Source of the DNA: Anaerorhabdus furcosa
Lineage (GTDB): Bacteria > Bacillota_I > Bacilli_A > Erysipelotrichales > Erysipelotrichaceae
Assembly (NCBI RefSeq): GCF_900167375.1
Contig: NZ_FUWY01000001.1
Location: 558,001-622,000 of the forward strand
Direction: 5' to 3'
Length of the DNA stretch: 64,000 bases
Of the stretch, positions 43,746 through 54,662 are shown one piece after another. Below the pieces are notes generated by a model that searched no databases, was not told the DNA's origin, and saw only the letters and a list, made by a program, of their open reading frames with translations. Both the position numbers and the translations under genes were made by a program. Numbering within the stretch: position 1 is the stretch's first letter; each line of letters starts with the position of its first letter.

Positions 43746-44447
43746 ATGAAAAAATTGATTGCTTTATTGCTTGTTGGCTTAGTTCTTGTTGGATGTTCAG
43801 ATAAGAAAAAACCAGAATCGACAACAACACCTATCCCAACTCCTATTAGTACAGTTGAGCCAACACCTATCCCTTTAGATCATGATACTTATGATAGTTT
43901 ATACGTTATTATAAATAAGAATCACCCATTACCGGAGGATTTTGAGCCAAGTGATCTTGTAGTACCTAATGTCCTTGCCACAAAAGATGGATTGCAAATC
44001 CGTCAAGAGGCAGCCACTGCACTAGAAGATATGTTTAATGCTGCAAAAGAGGAAGGTATTACACTTCGATTAGGTAGTGGATATCGTTCATATAGCACTC
44101 AAAATCGCCTTTTTAATAATTATGTAGCAAAAGATGGTGAAGAAGCCGCAAATCGCTATAGCGCTCGTCCTGGGCAATCTGAGCATCAAACAGGTTGGGC
44201 AGTGGATATAAGTGATGGAAGTATGAACAACTGGTTAAAAAACAGTTTTAAAAATACCCCTGAAGGGATTTGGTTAGCTGAAAACTCATATAAATATGGT
44301 TTTGTCCTACGTTATACAGAAGAAAAAGAAGAAGTTACAGGTTATATCTATGAACCTTGGCATTTCCGTTATATAGGCTTAGAAGAAGCTCAAAAAATAA
44401 CTGAAAGTGGATTGACTCTAGAAGAATTCTATAATTATATGAATTAA
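43746..44447 (+). CDS. VanY-like D-alanyl-D-alanine carboxypeptidase lipoprotein
   Basis: This predicted lipoprotein (233 residues from the ATG at 43746) has signal peptide LIALLLVGLVLVGCSDKK with the lipid-bearing Cys17. A short Thr/Pro linker leads to a VanY zinc peptidase domain. Metal motifs are SEHQTGWAVDIS (HxxxxxxD) and EPWHFRY. It trims the terminal D-Ala of peptidoglycan stem peptides. The frame opens at 43689, but GAGGTAG lies 7 bp before this ATG. It is the first gene of the rightward block that includes rpmH. Confidence 0.88.
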   Translation: MKKLIALLLVGLVLVGCSDKKKPESTTTPIPTPISTVEPTPIPLDHDTYDSLYVIINKNHPLPEDFEPSDLVVPNVLATKDGLQIRQEAATALEDMFNAAKEEGITLRLGSGYRSYSTQNRLFNNYVAKDGEEAANRYSARPGQSEHQTGWAVDISDGSMNNWLKNSFKNTPEGIWLAENSYKYGFVLRYTEEKEEVTGYIYEPWHFRYIGLEEAQKITESGLTLEEFYNYMN

Positions 44448-44473
44448 TCTCTTTGAACTTATTATGGTTTTTA

Positions 44474-44502
44474 TTGACTTTTAAATAACTGTCCCTTATG
44501 AT
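44474..44502 (+). promoter_or_regulatory. rpmH promoter
   Basis: TTGACT (44474-44479) and TATGAT (44497-44502) are 17 bp apart. GGAGGTG follows, 8 bp before the rpmH ATG. Confidence 0.7.
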
Positions 44503-44550
44503 TATAAAGCAATTGTTCTATTTATTATAGTAAAAATGGAGGTGGATTTG

Positions 44551-44685
44551 ATGAAAAGAACATATCAACCAAGCAAAAGAAAACACCAAAAAGTCCACGG
44601 ATTTAGAGCCCGCATGAAAACGGTTGGTGGCCGTAAGGTACTAGCACGCCGTCGCAGTAAAGGTAGAAAGATCTTATCGGCTTAA
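44551..44685 (+). CDS. rpmH: 50S ribosomal protein L34
   Basis: The 44-residue, strongly basic protein reads [18 protein letters not shown] and ends GRKILSA, the usual L34 pattern. It is too short for the supplied gene set but unmistakable, with GGAGGTG upstream and a good promoter. A terminator hairpin directly follows its stop. It heads the rpmH-rnpA-yidC-jag cluster, which here points toward dnaA. Confidence 0.97.
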
Positions 44686-44686
44686 G

Positions 44687-44713
44687 AAAAGTCACCAGAT
44701 GGTGACTTTTTTT
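44687..44713 (+). terminator. Terminator/attenuator between rpmH and rnpA
   Basis: A 10-bp perfect stem (44687-44696 with 44701-44710) has a four-base loop and seven T. It is a textbook intrinsic terminator placed inside the operon, 10 bp before the rnpA ATG. Confidence 0.85.
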
Positions 44714-44722
44714 CAAAATTTT

Positions 44723-45064
44723 ATGAAGATACAATATCGCATTAAGAAACAAGAAGAATTTCAAACCATAATAGGTAAGAAAAAATCAATTGCGAACGCT
44801 ACTTTTGTCCTATACTATCAACCTAAACAAGAGCTTTGGTCTAGAATAGGTATCTCTGTGGGTAAAAAGATTGGAAATGCCGTTTACCGTAATAAATACA
44901 AAAGACAATGTCGAATGATTTTACAAGAAACTGTAGATTTTAACAGTTATCCTTGTGATTTAATCATTATTGTTAGAAATAAATTTACTAAGCAGTCTTA
45001 TCTAGATAACAAAAAAGACTTGGAAAGCTTATTAAATAAAGTTACAATTATAAAGCATATATGA
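44723..45064 (+). CDS. rnpA: Ribonuclease P protein component
   Basis: RnpA binds the RNase P RNA and helps process tRNA 5' ends. Read from the ATG at 44723, the 113-residue basic protein has RIGISVGKKIGNAVYRNKYKRQCR, the RNR-type motif in a variant form. No ribosome site is visible before the ATG, only TTCAAAATTTT after the terminator. Translation may depend on coupling or on the read-through transcript. It sits 14 bp upstream of yidC. Confidence 0.92.
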   Translation: MKIQYRIKKQEEFQTIIGKKKSIANATFVLYYQPKQELWSRIGISVGKKIGNAVYRNKYKRQCRMILQETVDFNSYPCDLIIIVRNKFTKQSYLDNKKDLESLLNKVTIIKHI

Positions 45065-45077
45065 TGAGGAGATTTAA

Positions 45078-45965
45078 ATGAAAAGAAAAACAAAAAAAAT
45101 TATTCTCTTAGTAGGAATCTTTGCAGCACTATTTCTATTAAGTGGATGTACTACTCCCATGGTCAAAGATCCTGAGACAGGAAAAGAAGTCGTAAAATTA
45201 ATTACAACTTCAACAACTTTCCAAGACATATTTAATTCTGAGAGTTGGTTCAGTGCATTAATTGTTTTCCCATTATCACAATTAATGAATTACTTAACAC
45301 CAATCATTGGTGTTGTTGCGGCAATCGCTATTGTTACTGTTGGAGTTAACGTATTTACAATGTTACTTACTGTTAAGTCAACTGTAGCTTCTCAAAGAAT
45401 GCAACAACTACAACCAGAGATGGATAAAATTACAAAGAAGTATGAAGGTAAAACAGATGATCGTTCTCGTATGGCACAAGCACAAGAAATGCAAAACCTA
45501 TACAAGAAGTTCAATATCAATCCATTCTCAATGATTTTAGTAACATTCTTGCAATTACCAATTATCTTAGCTATCTATCAATCTGTTCAACGTTCTGAAG
45601 CTGTTGCACATGGTCATTTCTTAGGATTAAGTTTAGAACAAACTCCTTGGAATGGATTACTAGAAGGTCAATACATGTATATCGTCTTATTCGTGTTGAT
45701 GCTTGCATGTCAATTCGGTTCAATGTACTTACCACAATTCTTAGCAAAACAAAAAGCGAAGAAGGAAGCTGAAGCTGCAGGTAAGAGATATACACCAACA
45801 ACTAACAAAGCAAACAACATGATGTATTATATGATGGTTCCTGTTATGGTTTTATCTGTAATGTGGCCATCTGCTATGACAATCTACTGGGCTATTTCAT
45901 CTTTAACAATGATTGCGAAAACACTTATTGTACAAAAATTCTTTATTGACAAGAAAGAAGGTTAA
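45078..45965 (+). CDS. yidC: Membrane protein insertase YidC
   Basis: YidC inserts and folds membrane proteins. The 295-residue Gram-positive type has a lipoprotein signal with Cys24 (LLSGCTTP) and the conserved insertase core of five helices: FSALIVFPLSQLMNYLTP, then PEMDKITKKYEGK, NPFSMILVTFLQLPI and the C-terminal hairpin helices. yidD, often between rnpA and yidC, is absent here. It is followed by jag after 2 bp. Confidence 0.95.
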   Translation: MKRKTKKIILLVGIFAALFLLSGCTTPMVKDPETGKEVVKLITTSTTFQDIFNSESWFSALIVFPLSQLMNYLTPIIGVVAAIAIVTVGVNVFTMLLTVKSTVASQRMQQLQPEMDKITKKYEGKTDDRSRMAQAQEMQNLYKKFNINPFSMILVTFLQLPIILAIYQSVQRSEAVAHGHFLGLSLEQTPWNGLLEGQYMYIVLFVLMLACQFGSMYLPQFLAKQKAKKEAEAAGKRYTPTTNKANNMMYYMMVPVMVLSVMWPSAMTIYWAISSLTMIAKTLIVQKFFIDKKEG

Positions 45966-45967
45966 TT

Positions 45968-46594
45968 ATGAAAAAATATACTGCTAAAACATTAGATGAA
46001 CTTTTAAAAAATGCCGCAAATGATAAGCATGTAGAAATTAATGATTTAACTTATTTTGTAACAGAAGAAAAAAAAGGTATTCTTGGAATTGGAACTTCAG
46101 TTAGTGCTGATGTTTACTGTATGGATGATGTGAAAGAATTTATCTTTAATTATTTAGGCGAATTCTTTACTGAATTAAACCAAGAAATTGAAGTTGAAAT
46201 TGTAAGACAAAATGACGGATTCAAAGTCATGTTGAATGCTGAAAACAATGCAATTCTCATTGGTAAGAATGGTCAAACACTTCAAGCAATGAATACAGTA
46301 TTACGTGGTGCAGTAAATAGTACATTTAAAAAACGTATTCCTACATTAATTGATATCAACAACTACAAAACAGATCGTTATGCTAAAGTAAAAGCTATGG
46401 CTAAGCGTATCGCAAGAACTGTACAAAAAACAAAAGTTGAAGCAGTTCTAGATCCAATGCCTAACGATGAACGTAAAGTAATTCATCAATTCTTAGGAGA
46501 AATGGATCATATCAAAACAGAATCTGAAGGTGAAGGTAATCATCGTCACTTAAAGATTATGTATGATGAAAATAAAAAAGGAACTACAAATTAA
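45968..46594 (+). CDS. jag: RNA-binding protein Jag/KhpB
   Basis: The 208-residue protein has the Jag N-terminal domain (about 1-45, TAKTLDELLKNAAND), a KH domain (LIGKNGQTLQAMNTVLRG) and a C-terminal R3H domain (DPMPNDERKVIHQFLGE). KhpB with KhpA binds many RNAs and affects cell elongation. It is the last gene of the rpmH cluster. mnmE/trmE, mnmG and rsmG, which often follow, are not in this window. Confidence 0.93.
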   Translation: MKKYTAKTLDELLKNAANDKHVEINDLTYFVTEEKKGILGIGTSVSADVYCMDDVKEFIFNYLGEFFTELNQEIEVEIVRQNDGFKVMLNAENNAILIGKNGQTLQAMNTVLRGAVNSTFKKRIPTLIDINNYKTDRYAKVKAMAKRIARTVQKTKVEAVLDPMPNDERKVIHQFLGEMDHIKTESEGEGNHRHLKIMYDENKKGTTN

Positions 46595-46596
46595 TT

Positions 46597-46632
46597 AGAA
46601 GGGACAGAATGATAAATTTTGTCCCTTTTTTT
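46597..46632 (+). terminator. Terminator after jag
   Basis: AGGGACA pairs with TGTCCCT (about 46600-46606 and 46620-46626), with further A-T pairs inside, and seven or more T follow. The next gene starts at 46660, after this hairpin. Confidence 0.8.
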
Positions 46633-46659
46633 GTTATACTTTGTATTGAGGTATACATA

Positions 46660-47457
46660 ATGAAAATTACTGCTTTAGTTGAGAATATTTCTCACACAGA
46701 TTTAAAACCGATTCATGGATTATCTTTATTTATTGAAACAAAGCATCACAACATACTATTTGATTTAGGACCAGATTCAACTTTATTTGAGAATGCAGAA
46801 AAATTGAATATTGATCTTCGTATGATTGATGTCGTTTTCATATCTCATGGTCATTATGATCACGGAGGAGCTCTAAAAAGATTTCTAGATATAAATAATA
46901 CCGCAAAAATTTATGTGCAAAGAAAAGCATTTGAGAAGCATTATAATAAAATTAGTCTATTTAAAATTAGTGTTGGAATTGATCAGCATTTAGAAAATCA
47001 TCCTCAAGTTATTCTTGTGGATGGTGATTTAAAAATTGATGATGAATTAACTTTATTTGTAGTAAGCAATATAAGCAAATGTCGATCTATTGAAAATGAT
47101 CATCTTTATACAAAAGAGGGGAAAGATAATTTTCTTCATGAACAAAATTTAATCATCAATGAAAATACAACTGCCCTTATTATGGGATGTGGACATGCAG
47201 GTTTAATTAATATTCTCGAAAAAGCTAAAGAAGTAAATCCTCATATTTGTGTTGGTGGATATCATTTAGCTTATCCAGCAACAAAGAAACAAATTAATTA
47301 TCCACTACTTGATCAAATCATTTTGGAGTTAGAAAATTATCCAAATATAGAATTTTACACTTGCCATTGCACTGGCATAAAGAGTTATGAATATTTAGCA
47401 TCTAAGCTAGATTGTATGCACTATTTATCGTGTGGTGAAACCTATAGATTTGACTAG
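46660..47457 (+). CDS. MBL-fold metallo-hydrolase
   Basis: This metallo-beta-lactamase-fold hydrolase has 265 residues. The ATG at 46660 has GAGGTATA upstream; the frame's earlier part lies inside the jag terminator. It has the metal motif SHGHYDHGG and HxH-type motifs GCGHAG and GGYHL, and ends in TCHCTG, resembling the COG1237 branch (dihydropterin-related enzymes). The substrate is unknown. It is co-oriented with the rpmH operon and ends just left of the origin. Confidence 0.82.
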   Translation: MKITALVENISHTDLKPIHGLSLFIETKHHNILFDLGPDSTLFENAEKLNIDLRMIDVVFISHGHYDHGGALKRFLDINNTAKIYVQRKAFEKHYNKISLFKISVGIDQHLENHPQVILVDGDLKIDDELTLFVVSNISKCRSIENDHLYTKEGKDNFLHEQNLIINENTTALIMGCGHAGLINILEKAKEVNPHICVGGYHLAYPATKKQINYPLLDQIILELENYPNIEFYTCHCTGIKSYEYLASKLDCMHYLSCGETYRFD

Positions 47458-47565
47458 AATTAAAATTCTAATTTAACTTCATTTTAAGACGTGATAGAGC
47501 ATTTGATTCAAAATACATTCTACTACATTAAATTAGCTTGAAACCGCTTTATAACGCTTTAATTC

Positions 47566-47608
47566 TCATCGGTTATGTGGAAAACTAACATATAACCGAT
47601 GATTTTTT
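47566..47608 (+). terminator. Terminator at the left edge of the origin region, with a DnaA box in its loop
   Basis: An 11-bp stem (47566-47576 with 47592-47602) is followed by seven T. The loop contains TGTGGAAAA (47576-47584), a reverse DnaA box. Confidence 0.75.
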
Positions 47609-47955
47609 TAATTGTTGAAAAAATTAACTTCGAATCATATGAGAAATCCACAATATTTTAGAGTTTTCAACAATGAAATCACAATCCACAATCATTAGTT
47701 TTCCACAATTGTGGAAAACTGTTGAAAACACTAAAATACCCTTTATTTATCGCGTATTTTGATTGTTGATAAATGGAGATAACTTCAAGGCACATTCGAT
47801 TTTCCCACATTTTCCACAATCTATATCTATGTGGTAAACTTTTCCACGATTTATCCCCTTTTTAAAGTTGTGGAAAATTGTGGAAAACTCAAAAATAGTT
47901 AGTAATTATCACTCTTTATTTATTTTTCTGTTGTGGATAAAAAAAGTTTTCCACA
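47576..47955. other. Replication origin, DnaA-box field upstream of dnaA (oriC left part)
   Basis: The 592-bp gap 47458-48049 has no gene. It holds many DnaA boxes. Forward TTTTCCACA lies at 47699, 47810 and 47947. Reverse TGTGGAAAA lies at 47576, 47710, 47869 and 47879. A perfect reverse TTATCCACA lies at 47932-47940, with near-matches at 47644, 47682, 47801, 47830 and 47840. A dense cluster just upstream of dnaA is the normal signature of a Bacillota origin. Confidence 0.88.
47697..47720. repeat. 24-bp perfect palindrome made of two opposed DnaA boxes
   Basis: TTTTCCACA (47699-47707) and TGTGGAAAA (47710-47718) face each other, two bases (AT) apart, and the symmetry extends two bases further on each side without a mismatch. 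Such symmetric pairs are rarer than tandem boxes. Confidence 0.85.
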
Positions 47956-47983
47956 ATTTGCTGTTTTTTACCTAGATTTAACA

Positions 47984-48038
47984 TGCTATAATGTTCCTAC
48001 AACTTATATTTATTTAGTGAAAATTTATAAGGAAGGGG
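47984..48038 (+). promoter_or_regulatory. dnaA promoter (extended -10) and ribosome site
   Basis: TGCTATAAT at 47984-47992 is an extended -10 box. GGAAGGGG at 48031-48038 is the ribosome site, 11 bp before the ATG. Two DnaA boxes (47932 and 47947) lie directly upstream, fitting repression of dnaA by its own product. Confidence 0.65.
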
Positions 48039-48049
48039 CAACTATTTTT

Positions 48050-49426
48050 ATGACTAACAATTCTTTTTATTTGAATGAAATTTGGTCGAGAACTCTTGAA
48101 TCAATTGGGACTTCTGGACGTGTAGATAACTTCGTATTTGATAATTTTTATAAGGAATCAAACCTTGTTGATTTAAATGAGAAGAAAGCTCTTATTTCTG
48201 TTGCTTCGTTTATTCATAAAACTTTATTAATGAATGAAATTGATTTAATTTCTACTACATTAGAAGATATATTAAACGCACCTACAAAATTGCAATGCGA
48301 TATTATATTAGAAAAAGATTTAACACGCTTTGTTGATAATACAAATGAAGTCAATATTATTGAATCAATGGATGAATCATTTGATAGTAGCCCTTTAAGA
48401 GAAGATAGAACCTTTGAGAATTTCATTGTTGGTGATTGTAATCGGGAAAGTCACTCTGCAGCACTAGCTTGTGCATATAATCCTGGTAACTTGTTTAATC
48501 CTTTGTTTATTTATGGTAATTCTGGATTAGGTAAAAGTCATTTGCTTTGTGCTATTGGTAATTATGTAAAGAAAAATGAACCTAGTAAAAAAGTATATTA
48601 TACAGATTCAAATAAATTTGTAGATAATGTTGTTAATTCTATCAAATTAGGTAAAATCGATGCCTTTAAGAAGTATATGTATTCAATTGATGTTTTATTG
48701 ATTGATGATATTCAATTTATTGCTGGTAAAGAGAAATCACATGAGATATTTTTCTCTATATTTAATGAATTAGTTAATAATCGTAAGCAAATTTGTATCG
48801 TTTCTGATCGTTTACCTACTGAAATTAAAGGACTTGAAGATCGTTTGATTAGTAGATTCTCTTCAGGTTTATCTGTTGGTATTGATTCTCCTGAATTTGA
48901 GACATCTTTAGCAATTCTAAAATTAAAGATGAGTAATTCTGCATTTGAATCAAGAAATATAGATGAAGAAGCTTTATCTTTTATAGCATCTAACTTCAAT
49001 CGTGACGTAAGACAGTTAGAAGGGGCTTTAAATCGAGTTCTATTCTATGCGATTGAGTTTCAAAAAGATGATGGAAAGATTCGTTTTGATACGGCTACCA
49101 ACGCTTTAAGAGGTCAAGTGCTTGTTTCTGATAAGTCGGGTATAACCGTTCGAAAAATTATAAAATGTGTATCTGAATATTATGGATTAACAAAGCAACA
49201 ACTAACAAGTAAGACACGGACTAAAAACATTTCAACCGCTAGACAGATTGCTATGTTCATGTGTCGTAAGTTACTTGATTTACCTTACATTAAAATTGGT
49301 GAAGAATTTGGTGGTAGAGATCATTCTACAGTAATGAGTTCTTGTGAGAAAGTTGAAAAACAAAGTAAAGCTAGTGGTGCTTATTTACAAGCTTTAAATG
49401 AAATTGAAAAAATTATTAAGTCTTGA
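48050..49426 (+). CDS. dnaA: Chromosomal replication initiator protein DnaA
   Basis: DnaA opens the origin and loads the helicase. Read from the ATG at 48050 it has 458 residues. Domain I/II form about residues 1-115. AAA+ domain III has Walker A GNSGLGKSH (156-164) and Walker B LLIDDIQFI. C-terminal domain IV has the DnaA signature GEEFGGRDHSTVMSS. The frame opens 39 codons earlier inside the origin, but that part covers DnaA boxes and the promoter. Confidence 0.97.
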   Translation: MTNNSFYLNEIWSRTLESIGTSGRVDNFVFDNFYKESNLVDLNEKKALISVASFIHKTLLMNEIDLISTTLEDILNAPTKLQCDIILEKDLTRFVDNTNEVNIIESMDESFDSSPLREDRTFENFIVGDCNRESHSAALACAYNPGNLFNPLFIYGNSGLGKSHLLCAIGNYVKKNEPSKKVYYTDSNKFVDNVVNSIKLGKIDAFKKYMYSIDVLLIDDIQFIAGKEKSHEIFFSIFNELVNNRKQICIVSDRLPTEIKGLEDRLISRFSSGLSVGIDSPEFETSLAILKLKMSNSAFESRNIDEEALSFIASNFNRDVRQLEGALNRVLFYAIEFQKDDGKIRFDTATNALRGQVLVSDKSGITVRKIIKCVSEYYGLTKQQLTSKTRTKNISTARQIAMFMCRKLLDLPYIKIGEEFGGRDHSTVMSSCEKVEKQSKASGAYLQALNEIEKIIKS

Positions 49427-49502
49427 ACTTTACACACTTTTACGCTTTTATTTCACATAGAAAAGTGTTAAAATATACTTATAAAATAAGGCGATTTGGA
49501 AG

Positions 49503-49557
49503 TTTTCCACTTTTCCACAGTCTTAATAGTAATAATTCTTTAAAAACTATTTATATA
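49503..49557 (+). other. Candidate origin unwinding region between dnaA and dnaN
   Basis: Two abutting DnaA boxes (TTTTCCACT 49503-49511 and TTTTCCACA 49511-49519) are followed 4 bp later by TAATAGTAATAA (49524-49535). That reads as four consecutive 3-base repeats of the DnaA-trio type (TAA/TAG). An A/T-only run to about 49557 comes next. B. subtilis has its unwinding element in the same gene gap. Assignment is inferred from pattern and position. Confidence 0.6.
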
Positions 49558-49572
49558 TACTAGGAGGCCACT

Positions 49573-50694
49573 ATGAATTTCAAAGTATCGAAGAGAATTT
49601 TCTACAATGCATTACAAGTAGTTTCAAGAGCAATCTCTGCAAATTCTCCATTACCTTCTTTATCAGGAATTAAAATTGAAGTAAATGATGATCATATTAT
49701 TTTAACAGGAAGTGATTCAGATATTTCTATTCAAAAGATTTTGAATAATGATGATGAAGATTTAAACTTAATTGTAAAAGAAACAGGATCGATTGTTATT
49801 GAAGCTAAATACATTTTAGAAATCGTTAGAAAAATTGATGCTGATGAAATTAATTTTGAAATCGTTGATGGATCATTAACAAAAATTAGTGGACTTTCTG
49901 CAGAATACAAAATTAATGGTATGAGAAGCAGTGATTATCCTGCAATTGATTTTTCAAAACCAAGTCAACAATTTGATATGGATGCAGATGTTTTAATGAA
50001 AGTTATTAATCAAACAAGTTTTGCTACAAGTGATAAAGAAACAAGACCAGTATTAACTGGTGTTAACTTTAGATGCAAAGGTGGTAAGCTTGAATGTGTT
50101 GCAACAGATAGCTATCGTTTAGCTAGAAAAGAAATTGAATTAGAAGGTGATAATAATTTTAATATTACTATTCCTGCTAAGAGTTTAAATGAAATTGTGA
50201 AGACAATTGATAAAGATGGTAAAGTTAATGTTTGTGTTTCTGATAAGAAAGCACAATTTTGGATTAGTAATACATTAATTCAAACACGCTTAATTGATGG
50301 TTCATATCCTGAAACTGAAAGATTAGTACCTACTGAATTTTTACATGAAATGATTGTTGATAGTCGTGATATTCTTAATGCTATTGATCGTGCATCATTT
50401 ATTAAAAATGAAGGGATTTCAATTGTAAAATTGAGTGCTGATTCTAAAGAAGTTGTTATTTCAAGTAAATCGCAAGAAGTTGGTTCATCTACAGAAAGAT
50501 TGAATGTAATTTCTTATACTGGCGATCCAATAGAAATAAGTTTTAGTGGAAGATATGTATTTGAAGCTATTCGTACTTTATCTACTACAACAGTTAAAAT
50601 TCAATTTAGTGGTGAAATGAAACCATTTGTTATTAAGAACAATGAAGATGATTCAATTCTTCAATTGGTATTACCAGTAAGAACTTATTCATAA
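49573..50694 (+). CDS. dnaN: DNA polymerase III beta subunit (sliding clamp)
   Basis: DnaN is the ring that tethers polymerase to DNA. The 373-residue protein has the three clamp domains and typical segments NFKVSKRIFYNALQVVSRAI, TDSYRLARKEI near the middle, and the C-terminal peptide LQLVLPVRTYS, which matches the conserved MxLxxPVRxY end. AGGAGG precedes the start. A terminator follows, so it is not directly joined to recF. Confidence 0.97.
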   Translation: MNFKVSKRIFYNALQVVSRAISANSPLPSLSGIKIEVNDDHIILTGSDSDISIQKILNNDDEDLNLIVKETGSIVIEAKYILEIVRKIDADEINFEIVDGSLTKISGLSAEYKINGMRSSDYPAIDFSKPSQQFDMDADVLMKVINQTSFATSDKETRPVLTGVNFRCKGGKLECVATDSYRLARKEIELEGDNNFNITIPAKSLNEIVKTIDKDGKVNVCVSDKKAQFWISNTLIQTRLIDGSYPETERLVPTEFLHEMIVDSRDILNAIDRASFIKNEGISIVKLSADSKEVVISSKSQEVGSSTERLNVISYTGDPIEISFSGRYVFEAIRTLSTTTVKIQFSGEMKPFVIKNNEDDSILQLVLPVRTYS

Positions 50695-50721
50695 AAAACA
50701 ACGATAATTAATCGTTGTTTT
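50695..50721. terminator. Terminator after dnaN, shared with the convergent GNAT gene
   Basis: An 11-bp perfect stem (50695-50705 with 50711-50721) has a five-base loop containing the end of the GNAT stop. A and T runs flank it. Confidence 0.8.
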
Positions 50722-51157
50722 CTTTTCTATCATTTACCATTTGCATATAAGGTAGTACTTTGTATCCTAAGCGTTCATATAGAGCTATAGCTCGTTGGTT
50801 GTCTTCTTCTACCTCTAGACGATAGCGGGCTGCTTTTATATTCGCATTTACATAGGCAAAGACTTCTTTACCTAATCCTTTACCTTGGTAATTAGGTCTT
50901 ACATAAATTTCTTCAAACCAGATACTTGGGCCACCAACTTCTGGTGAAAATGATTTACTTAGTAAAGCATATCCGGCTGGTTCATTATTAAATTCTAATA
51001 TAAAGCATTCTAGATAGTCTTTTGAGCGAATAATTTCATTAAATGTATCTTGTATATAAGATACTGGAATTGGTTCTAAAACGGCATCAGAATGATAAAA
51101 TTCATCACACAGTTCCATAAACAAAGATTCATCTTTTTTTTCTACATGTCTTAACAT
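50708..51157 (-). CDS. GNAT-family N-acetyltransferase
   Basis: The 149-residue protein has the GNAT core: EPAGYALLSKSF, then IWFEEIYVRPNYQGKGLGKEVFAYV (acetyl-CoA loop R/QxxGxG/A) and RLEVEEDNQRAIALYERLGYKVL. The substrate is unknown. It lies on the reverse strand between dnaN and rlbA and breaks the usual dnaA-dnaN-rlbA-recF run. AAAGGAGAG and TATAAT lie upstream of its start. Confidence 0.9.
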   Translation of the reverse strand: MLRHVEKKDESLFMELCDEFYHSDAVLEPIPVSYIQDTFNEIIRSKDYLECFILEFNNEPAGYALLSKSFSPEVGGPSIWFEEIYVRPNYQGKGLGKEVFAYVNANIKAARYRLEVEEDNQRAIALYERLGYKVLPYMQMVNDRKENND

Positions 51158-51379
51158 AAATAACTCTCCTTTCTTACGATTATAACAAAACGTAATGAAT
51201 TAATCCAATTAGCTTATTTATTCTAGACAAAGTAAGAATAAGTGAAGTAAAAACAATCAAGAAATTTGAATAAGTATTAGGAAATAAATGAAATAAAAGT
51301 AAAGACTTTTTTGATTCATTTTAAATTAGTAAAAAGTGTAAAAAAAGCTTGATAAAATGCACATATTTTGATGTTTTTG

Positions 51380-51388
51380 TGGTATAAT
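51380..51388 (+). promoter_or_regulatory. Extended -10 promoter for the rlbA-recF-gyrB-gyrA run
   Basis: TGGTATAAT at 51380-51388 is an extended -10 box 37 bp before the rlbA start. No good -35 is visible. The rest of the 51158-51425 gap is AT-rich and shows no gene. Confidence 0.55.
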
Positions 51389-51425
51389 TTAATAGGGTTT
51401 TTGTGCCTAAAAAAGAGGAATATTT

Positions 51426-51625
51426 ATGACAAAAATTAATACTGATTTTATTACTTTATCACAGTTATTGAAAATGGAAGATTTAGTTAGTTCAGGAGGA
51501 GAAGTTAAGTACTTTTTAGCTAACGAAAAAGTTTTAGTAAATGATCAAGAAGAAAATCGTAGAGGAAAAAAATTATATCCAAATGATGTCATAAAGATTC
51601 ATGGTAAAAAGTTTATTATTGAAAA

Positions 51626-51629
<4 letters not shown>
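51426..51629 (+). CDS. yaaA: S4 domain-containing protein YaaA (RlbA)
   Basis: The 67-residue protein is a small S4 RNA-binding domain: DFITLSQLLKMEDLVSSGGEVKYFLANEKVLVNDQEENRRGKKLYPNDVI. In B. subtilis, yaaA (rlbA) sits between dnaN and recF, and its product is linked to 50S assembly. Here it overlaps recF by 4 bp, the conserved context. Confidence 0.93.

Positions 51630-54662
<3,033 letters not shown>

What the first reader, a model, noticed from the sequence alone, without database searches (positions are those of the whole stretch)
49503..49557. Bipartite origin with DnaA-trio-like repeats after dnaA
Two DnaA boxes are followed 4 bp later by TAATAGTAATAA and an A/T-only run in the dnaA-dnaN gap. 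This matches the basal unwinding layout of B. subtilis (boxes, then trios, then the unwinding element). Together with the upstream box field it implies a DNA loop across dnaA. The spacer between box and trios here is short and not GC-rich, which differs from the model.
Basis: partly seen in the sequence, partly recalled or inferred. Interest (0 to 1): 0.5.

Follow-up and report, generated by a model that had tools for sequence, protein, structure and literature searches.

The report
Likely DNA-opening site of replication origin
Just after the dnaA gene this bacterium carries a short conserved stretch that very probably marks where its chromosome is first pulled open for copying, a known kind of site, but spelled in a way that leaves open which of the two DNA strands the initiator protein grips.

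Summary
In the dnaA-dnaN gap two co-oriented DnaA boxes (49503-49511, 49511-49519) are followed by GTC and a period-3 A/T array (49523-49540), in the least stable 30-bp segment of 47000-50000. It is conserved: in 130 distinct gaps of the family and its order, T recurs at columns 5, 8 and 11 after box 2 in 275 of 390 cells (shuffle mean 156.7, sd 9.3); one locus per genus gives 141 of 201 (84.0, sd 6.7). Best reading: the Basal Unwinding System of a bipartite origin, as in Bacillus subtilis and Clostridioides difficile.

In the published polarity the units are 3'-AAT TAT CAT TAT TAA GAA-5': every centre is A, but the preferred G at position 1 appears only in the sixth. A 3-4 bp spacer is the published average.

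New: TAA arrays are common in the sampled class. In four other families their substitutions spare the top-strand A; in this family they lean weakly to the bottom strand. Which strand is gripped is open and testable. Binding, opening and looping were not tested.

The parts
49503..49511 (+). upstream DnaA box TTTTCCACT (2 mismatches to TTATCCACA)
   Evidence: tandem partner conserved in relatives
49511..49519 (+). downstream DnaA box TTTTCCACA (1 mismatch to TTATCCACA)
49520..49522 (+). spacer GTC
   Evidence: in 130 relatives column 3 is C in 62%
49523..49540 (-). six DnaA-trio-like units in the published polarity, 3'-AAT TAT CAT TAT TAA GAA-5' on the bottom strand
   Evidence: sequence; rule of PMC8287927; conservation
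49524..49535 (+). TAA-TAG-TAA-TAA: the same array read on the top strand, letter-perfect but inverted relative to the boxes
   Evidence: substitution spectra
49524..49539 (+). five overlapping TnnT, a possible DnaD recognition element opposite the bottom-strand trios
   Evidence: T at 49524, 49527, 49530, 49533, 49536, 49539; motif from PMC10201434; binding untested
49529..49559 (.). least stable 30-bp segment of 47000-50000, probable unwinding region
   Evidence: nearest-neighbour energies
47576..47955 (.). upstream DnaA box field (oriC1): 8 perfect TTWTCCACA, 15 with at most one mismatch, both orientations
   Evidence: 56 of 57 genus representatives have 4 or more boxes in the 600 nt before dnaA
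48050..49426 (+). dnaA
   Evidence: TIGR00362 429.5 bits, cut-off 343.9
49573..50694 (+). dnaN
   Evidence: TIGR00663 304.9 bits, cut-off 137.65
49466..49474 (+). TGTTAAAAT, probable extended -10 of a dnaN promoter, upstream of the boxes
   Evidence: TGNTADAAT in 70 of 130 gaps, shuffle mean 4.5; consensus match only

Best explanation
The element is the basal unwinding module of this chromosome's bipartite origin. DnaA binds the two co-oriented boxes and is handed onto one strand of the adjacent period-3 array, capturing one A per three bases; this opens the weak duplex at about 49523-49560. The upstream box field, about 1.55 kb away across dnaA, raises the local supply of DnaA, probably through a loop. 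Helicase is then loaded by the genome's own DnaD-, DnaB- and DnaI-like proteins. Shown here: layout, conservation, low duplex stability at 30 bp, upstream box density, presence of the genes. Inferred from B. subtilis and C. difficile: binding, strand capture, opening, loop, helicase loading. The bottom strand is the more likely one gripped (published polarity), but that is not settled.
For: Only tandem box site of 8 in the window with more than 4 units. Conservation of T at columns 5, 8, 11 in 130 gaps and in 67 genus representatives. In 57 genus representatives with 600 nt of upstream DNA the best candidate lies in the gap, + strand, in 46 (8 of them ties), although that is about 10% of the bases searched. 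Position 1 of the box-proximal trio is a purine on the bottom strand in 71 of 78 register-3 loci, but in only 29, 26 and 32 of 78 for trios 2-4; T/C at position 3 in 69, 67, 66 and 49: the proximal unit keeps the canonical letters, as reported for other bacteria (PMC8287927). Outside the two families (f1, f2), 59 of 112 distinct gaps have 4 or more NTN units after the best tandem box, shuffles 7.6. Least stable 30-mer of 47000-50000. DnaA arginine finger R264 and K222 kept. DnaD-domain protein next to nth, and DnaB-like next to DnaI-like ORFs, in the same genome. C. difficile opens at oriC2 and needs both origin halves (PMC7561715 passages).
Against: No experiment. Strict letters fail in this window: of six bottom-strand units only the first fits 3'-[G/A]A[T/C]-5' and only the sixth has G at position 1. 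The downstream box is the better match here, whereas upstream is usual (PMC8287927). Run length alone is common in this AT-rich DNA. In 11 of 57 genus representatives the best candidate lies only upstream of dnaA. 22 of 130 gaps (10 of 67 genera) lack T at 5, 8, 11 and at 4, 7, 10, several through misplaced anchors. At 50 and 100 bp segments inside dnaA are less stable, and a simple superhelical model favours the site only at -0.045 and in two of three domains. The residues that contact the trio in B. subtilis differ here: E183N, N187D, I190V, N196G, R202K, E228I.
Confidence: 0.8

Rival explanations
1. Same unwinding site, but DnaA captures the top strand: 5'-TAA-TAG-TAA-TAA-3' is letter-perfect there, so the array is inverted relative to the boxes, or is fetched by DnaA bound at the distant upstream boxes (strand recruitment as proposed for Thermotoga).
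For: TAA, TAG and CAA are reverse complements of the canonical top-strand TTA, CTA and TTG. In families f11, f14, f15, f22 internal units of TAA arrays show T1>C 13, A2>G 0, A3>G 1 (15 loci, 38 units; 10 loci, 8 genera with CAA), sparing the top-strand central A. In the window's family A3>G, which makes top-strand 3'-GAT-5', is the commonest change (16 of 87 units). T. maritima DnaA binds three TAG repeats through strand recruitment (PMC10316083 passages).
Against: In the window's own family T1>C is 0 and A2>G 6 (5 without the doubtful L002), which leans to the bottom strand, p 0.03 to 0.06; all T1 changes are 4 and all A2 changes 9 of 87. No box in the opposite orientation was found to the right of the array within the gap.
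Confidence: 0.25
2. Opening happens upstream of dnaA (oriC1); the gap element only binds DnaA or helps.
For: Most boxes are upstream. Best candidate only upstream in 11 of 57 genus representatives.
Against: Upstream candidates in this window reach 4 units at most; 47888-47931 is not especially unstable.
Confidence: 0.1
3. The array is a dnaN promoter or 5'-leader element (a -10 or a translation signal) and the boxes only regulate dnaN.
For: It lies in the presumed dnaN leader, box 2 end to dnaN a median of 52 nt.
Against: A promoter-like site lies upstream of the boxes (49466-49474; also TTCACA-16-TATACT 49452-49479). In L092 and L098 boxes and array stay together while roughly 90-120 nt more, with a promoter-like site, separate them from dnaN. 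No Rfam family in 44000-52000.
Confidence: 0.06
4. Chance resemblance in AT-rich DNA.
For: 68% A+T window; runs of 6-8 NTN units beside single boxes occur elsewhere by chance.
Against: Conserved at fixed distance from the boxes in 130 gaps; one genome hit.
Confidence: 0.02

Closest known systems
Basal Unwinding System (BUS) of Bacillus subtilis incC
   Same: Tandem co-oriented boxes, short spacer, period-3 units with A at the centre on the bottom strand, AT-rich DNA beyond, box field on the other side of dnaA (PMC6669920 introduction and discussion; PMC8287927 sections).
   Different: B. subtilis units are CTA CTA TTA CTT CTA CTA on top (PMC10201434), five of six with bottom G at position 1; here one of six. 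Boxes overlap by a base and the downstream one is the better match. DnaA contact residues differ.
Bipartite origin of Clostridioides difficile (oriC2 opening)
   Same: Boxes on both sides of dnaA, array and opening region in the dnaA-dnaN gap (PMC7561715 passages).
   Different: Its array is CTACTACTATTACTACTA; opening was shown there, not here.
Thermotoga maritima oriC with TAG repeats (eTrio)
   Same: Three-base TAG-type repeats captured by box-bound DnaA (PMC10316083 passages).
   Different: Different box sequence and arrangement; strand recruitment by a DnaA oligomer on the box cluster.
DnaD recognition element (DRE)
   Same: TnnT repeats opposite the trios; a DnaD-domain gene next to nth.
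   Different: The DnaD-like protein is 195 aa and below the cut-off of the one full-length family matched (TIGR04548 34.6 bits, cut-off 100); binding untested.

Membership tests
BUS | DnaA box with at most 2 mismatches, second box at most 4 | tested here: met
   1 and 2 mismatches
BUS | spacer of at most 16 bp | tested here: met
   3 bp, GTC
BUS | at least three 3'-NAN-5' units on the bottom strand | tested here: met
   six after the spacer
BUS | preferred letters 3'-[G/A]A[T/C]-5' (typical, not required by the published search rule) | tested here: inconclusive
   one of six units fits; in relatives kept at the first unit only
BUS | GC-rich gap between box and trios | tested here: inconclusive
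   two of three bases here; column 3 is C in 62% of 130 gaps, columns 1-2 mixed
BUS | DnaA- and ATP-dependent strand separation that needs boxes and trios | not testable with these tools
   needs protein and DNA scaffolds
BUS | DnaA residues that contact the trio | tested here: inconclusive
   K222, I193 and R264 kept; 183, 187, 190, 196, 202, 228 changed; not universally conserved elsewhere either (PMC10721633)
bipartite origin | box clusters on both sides of dnaA | tested here: met
bipartite origin | DNA loop joining the two clusters; both halves needed | not testable with these tools
   inference only
DRE | at least two TnnT opposite the trios | tested here: met
   five overlapping
DRE | DnaD that binds them through its C-terminal tail | not tested
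   DnaD-domain gene present; tail and binding not examined

The most novel reading that the evidence does not exclude
In much of this bacterial class the trio array is inverted relative to the DnaA boxes (TAA/TAG/CAA on the top strand), so that DnaA grips the strand opposite to the one used in B. subtilis, or its pocket accepts another central base; and lineages of one class differ in which strand is captured. The opposite substitution spectra suggest this: window family T1>C 0, A2>G 6; families f11, f14, f15, f22 T1>C 13, A2>G 0; Fisher p 3.7e-5, 1.2e-4 without the doubtful L002, 0.002 when counted as 4 loci against 8 genera. Shared ancestry is not corrected for.
Probability: 0.22. Interest if true: 0.75.

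Novelty: new variant of a known kind. Interest (0 to 1): 0.42.

Why it matters
It extends the basal unwinding module to a little-studied lineage with position-by-position conservation rather than a single look-alike, and shows that in this order the central base is kept while the first base is free beyond the box-proximal unit. If strand choice really differs between lineages, it bears directly on how DnaA decides which strand is opened and which receives the first helicase.

Tried and rejected
Covariation of array type (TAA or TTA) with an acidic residue at DnaA position 187 looked strong by eye: 48 of 50 acidic rows are TAA type among 121 typed of 141 rows, 20 ambiguous (some rows are near-copies). 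Rejected: on the tree, 7 independent pairs, b the same way 1.7, the other way 1.0, median p 1. In a wider class sample (156 typed of 197) 18 of 70 TTA-type rows are acidic and p is again 1. Residue 183 (E or G) also gave nothing. Such few pairs could not have reached significance, so this is absence of evidence, not disproof.

Residue 228 (E or other) against C at position 1 of trios 2-4: 5 of 31 against 12 of 112 loci, no clear link.

A one-run superhelical opening model was inconclusive. Rfam: no match in 44000-52000. Plasmid collection: no match. Literature: DnaA-trio, 43 papers, 30 listed; Erysipelotrichaceae with replication origin and DnaA box, 0; Erysipelothrix with oriC and dnaA, 1 listed, a phylogeny paper; DnaA-trio with inverted, 18 (15 listed), of which I looked inside PMC10721633, PMC10316083, PMC10201434 and PMC6669920; DnaA-trio with Mycoplasma and oriC, 6 (listing only). 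I met no description of this array in this family in what I saw, but the library holds open-licence papers only and the supplements of PMC8287927, which may list members, could not be opened.

One search read whole-genome loci on the minus strand the wrong way round; one search replaced it. Dropped rows: L042, L061 and L127 gave no gap; 149 gaps merged to 130 distinct. 10 of 67 genus representatives lacked 600 nt upstream. 75 of 243 gaps have no array under the strict rule.

Full report
What is there. Gene order: rnpA, yidC, jag-like, an MBL-fold ORF, dnaA, dnaN, a GNAT-like ORF on the minus strand, yaaA, recF, gyrB. Cumulative GC skew is lowest in the 43-44 kb bin and rises beyond, as expected near an origin. 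In the 146-nt dnaA-dnaN gap stand two co-oriented DnaA boxes, 49503-49511 and 49511-49519, GTC, and an array with T every third base on the top strand from 49524 to 49539.

Polarity. In B. subtilis the trios are on the bottom strand and the DnaD element is opposite (PMC10201434 passages); [quoted passage not shown] With the boxes pointing at the array, as here, the bottom strand gives 3'-AAT TAT CAT TAT TAA GAA-5'. The central A is present in all six; position 1 is G only in the sixth.

Chance. The composite pattern occurs once in the genome and not in the control. Within 47458-49600 the element has the longest run, 7 units against at most 4. Run length alone proves nothing: among 364 single boxes in the window 10 have 6 or more units, two of them this element, three others 8; among 8 tandem sites only this one exceeds 4. 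The case rests on conservation.

Conservation. Searches gave 152 loci; 149 have a dnaA-dnaN gap, 130 distinct. With an anchor that looks only at boxes, T at columns 5, 8 and 11 after box 2 is found in 275 of 390 cells against 156.7 (sd 9.3) in shuffles; for one locus in each of 67 genera 141 of 201 against 84.0 (sd 6.7). Columns 4, 7, 10 are also T-rich (204 of 390, z 5.1), a second register; columns 6, 9, 12 are T-poor (82 of 390, z -8.1). All three T are present in 78 of 130 loci (40 of 67 genera; shuffle mean 5.0 for the 67); 108 of 130 (57 of 67) if the earlier register counts; 22 and 10 fail. In the 78 register-3 loci position 1 is a purine on the bottom strand in 71 for the first trio and in 29, 26 and 32 for trios 2 to 4. 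The best candidate in 57 genus representatives lies in the gap in 46 (8 ties) and only upstream in 11. In L092 and L098 boxes and array are together but further from dnaN, with a promoter-like site between; in L130 the gap is 3,173 nt and the array stays beside dnaN.

Duplex stability and the rest of the origin. 49529-49559 is the least stable 30-bp segment of 47000-50000, with six lower windows in 64 kb; at 50 bp the site is second to 48224-48274 in dnaA, at 100 bp third. A simple superhelical model put the site first at -0.045 in two of three domains and gave it almost nothing at -0.055 and -0.06. The upstream region has 15 boxes, 8 perfect; 56 of 57 genus representatives have at least four there; box density is 16.7 per kb upstream against 0.7 in dnaA (medians). 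PF07261 finds two proteins: a DnaD-domain protein next to nth, and a DnaB-like protein (98 bits, far below that family's cut-off of 570) next to a DnaI-like one (212.9, cut-off 228).

DnaA pocket. Aligned to B. subtilis DnaA (8btg_A), where R202 and E228 bind the first base and N187 and E183 the central A (PMC10721633 passages and section 10), this DnaA has K, I, D and N. This agrees with a relaxed first base but does not show it. The idea that residue 187 sets the array type failed a tree-aware test.

Class-wide comparison. With 130 further loci, some overlapping, there are 243 distinct gaps; a strict rule finds TAA arrays in 96, TTA arrays in 72, neither in 75. Internal units of TTA arrays (72 loci, 148 units) change A3>G 22, T2>A 11, T1>A 4, T2>G 3, T1>C 3, other 4 and T2>C 0; the absence of T2>C fits bottom-strand trios, the 14 other T2 changes do not. 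TAA arrays differ by lineage: window family f1 (48 loci, 87 units) A3>G 16, A2>G 6, T1>C 0, with A3>T 4, A2>T 3, A3>C 2, T1>A 2, T1>G 2; families f11, f14, f15, f22 (15 loci, 38 units) T1>C 13, A2>G 0, with A3>G 1, T1>A 1, T1>G 1; the remaining families show few changes of either kind (T1>C 1, A2>G 1). One f1 A2>G (L002) is outside the real array. The second spectrum is what top-strand trios would give; the first leans to the bottom strand at p 0.03, or 0.06 without L002. Shared ancestry is not corrected for. This is the part a specialist may find new.

Verdict. A known kind of site in a new lineage, with a letter variant and an open question of strand. Papers: PMC8287927 sections 9, 13 and 14 read; PMC6669920 introduction and discussion; PMC10721633 section 10 and passages; PMC10201434, PMC7561715 and PMC10316083 passages only.

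Noticed in passing
L211, L213, L248, L256, L270, L271, L274, L275, L276, L278 (families f11, f14, f15, f22): TAA arrays beside DnaA boxes contain internal CAA units (13 in all), the reverse complement of TTG, sparing the top-strand A.
   Followed up: partly
L092 and L098 dnaA-dnaN gaps: Boxes and array sit roughly 90-120 nt further from dnaN than usual, with a promoter-like site between.
   Followed up: partly
L130 dnaA-dnaN gap: A 3,173-nt gap separates dnaA from dnaN; the array with degenerate boxes stays beside dnaN.
   Followed up: no
L133-L152 (family f2): Boxes of this family often read TTNTGCACA or TTATTCACA instead of TTWTCCACA, a possible shift in box specificity.
   Followed up: no
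window 46609-47457 (+): MBL-fold hydrolase-like ORF between jag and dnaA (weak NCBIfam matches).
   Followed up: no
window 50708-51157 (-): GNAT acetyltransferase-like ORF on the minus strand between dnaN and yaaA, head-on to a fork moving right (weak matches).
   Followed up: no
DnaA alignment around B. subtilis K222, e.g. L019, L027, L105: One branch of the family lacks K222 through a short deletion in the AGKE segment, although K222 contacts the DNA backbone in B. subtilis (PMC10721633).
   Followed up: no
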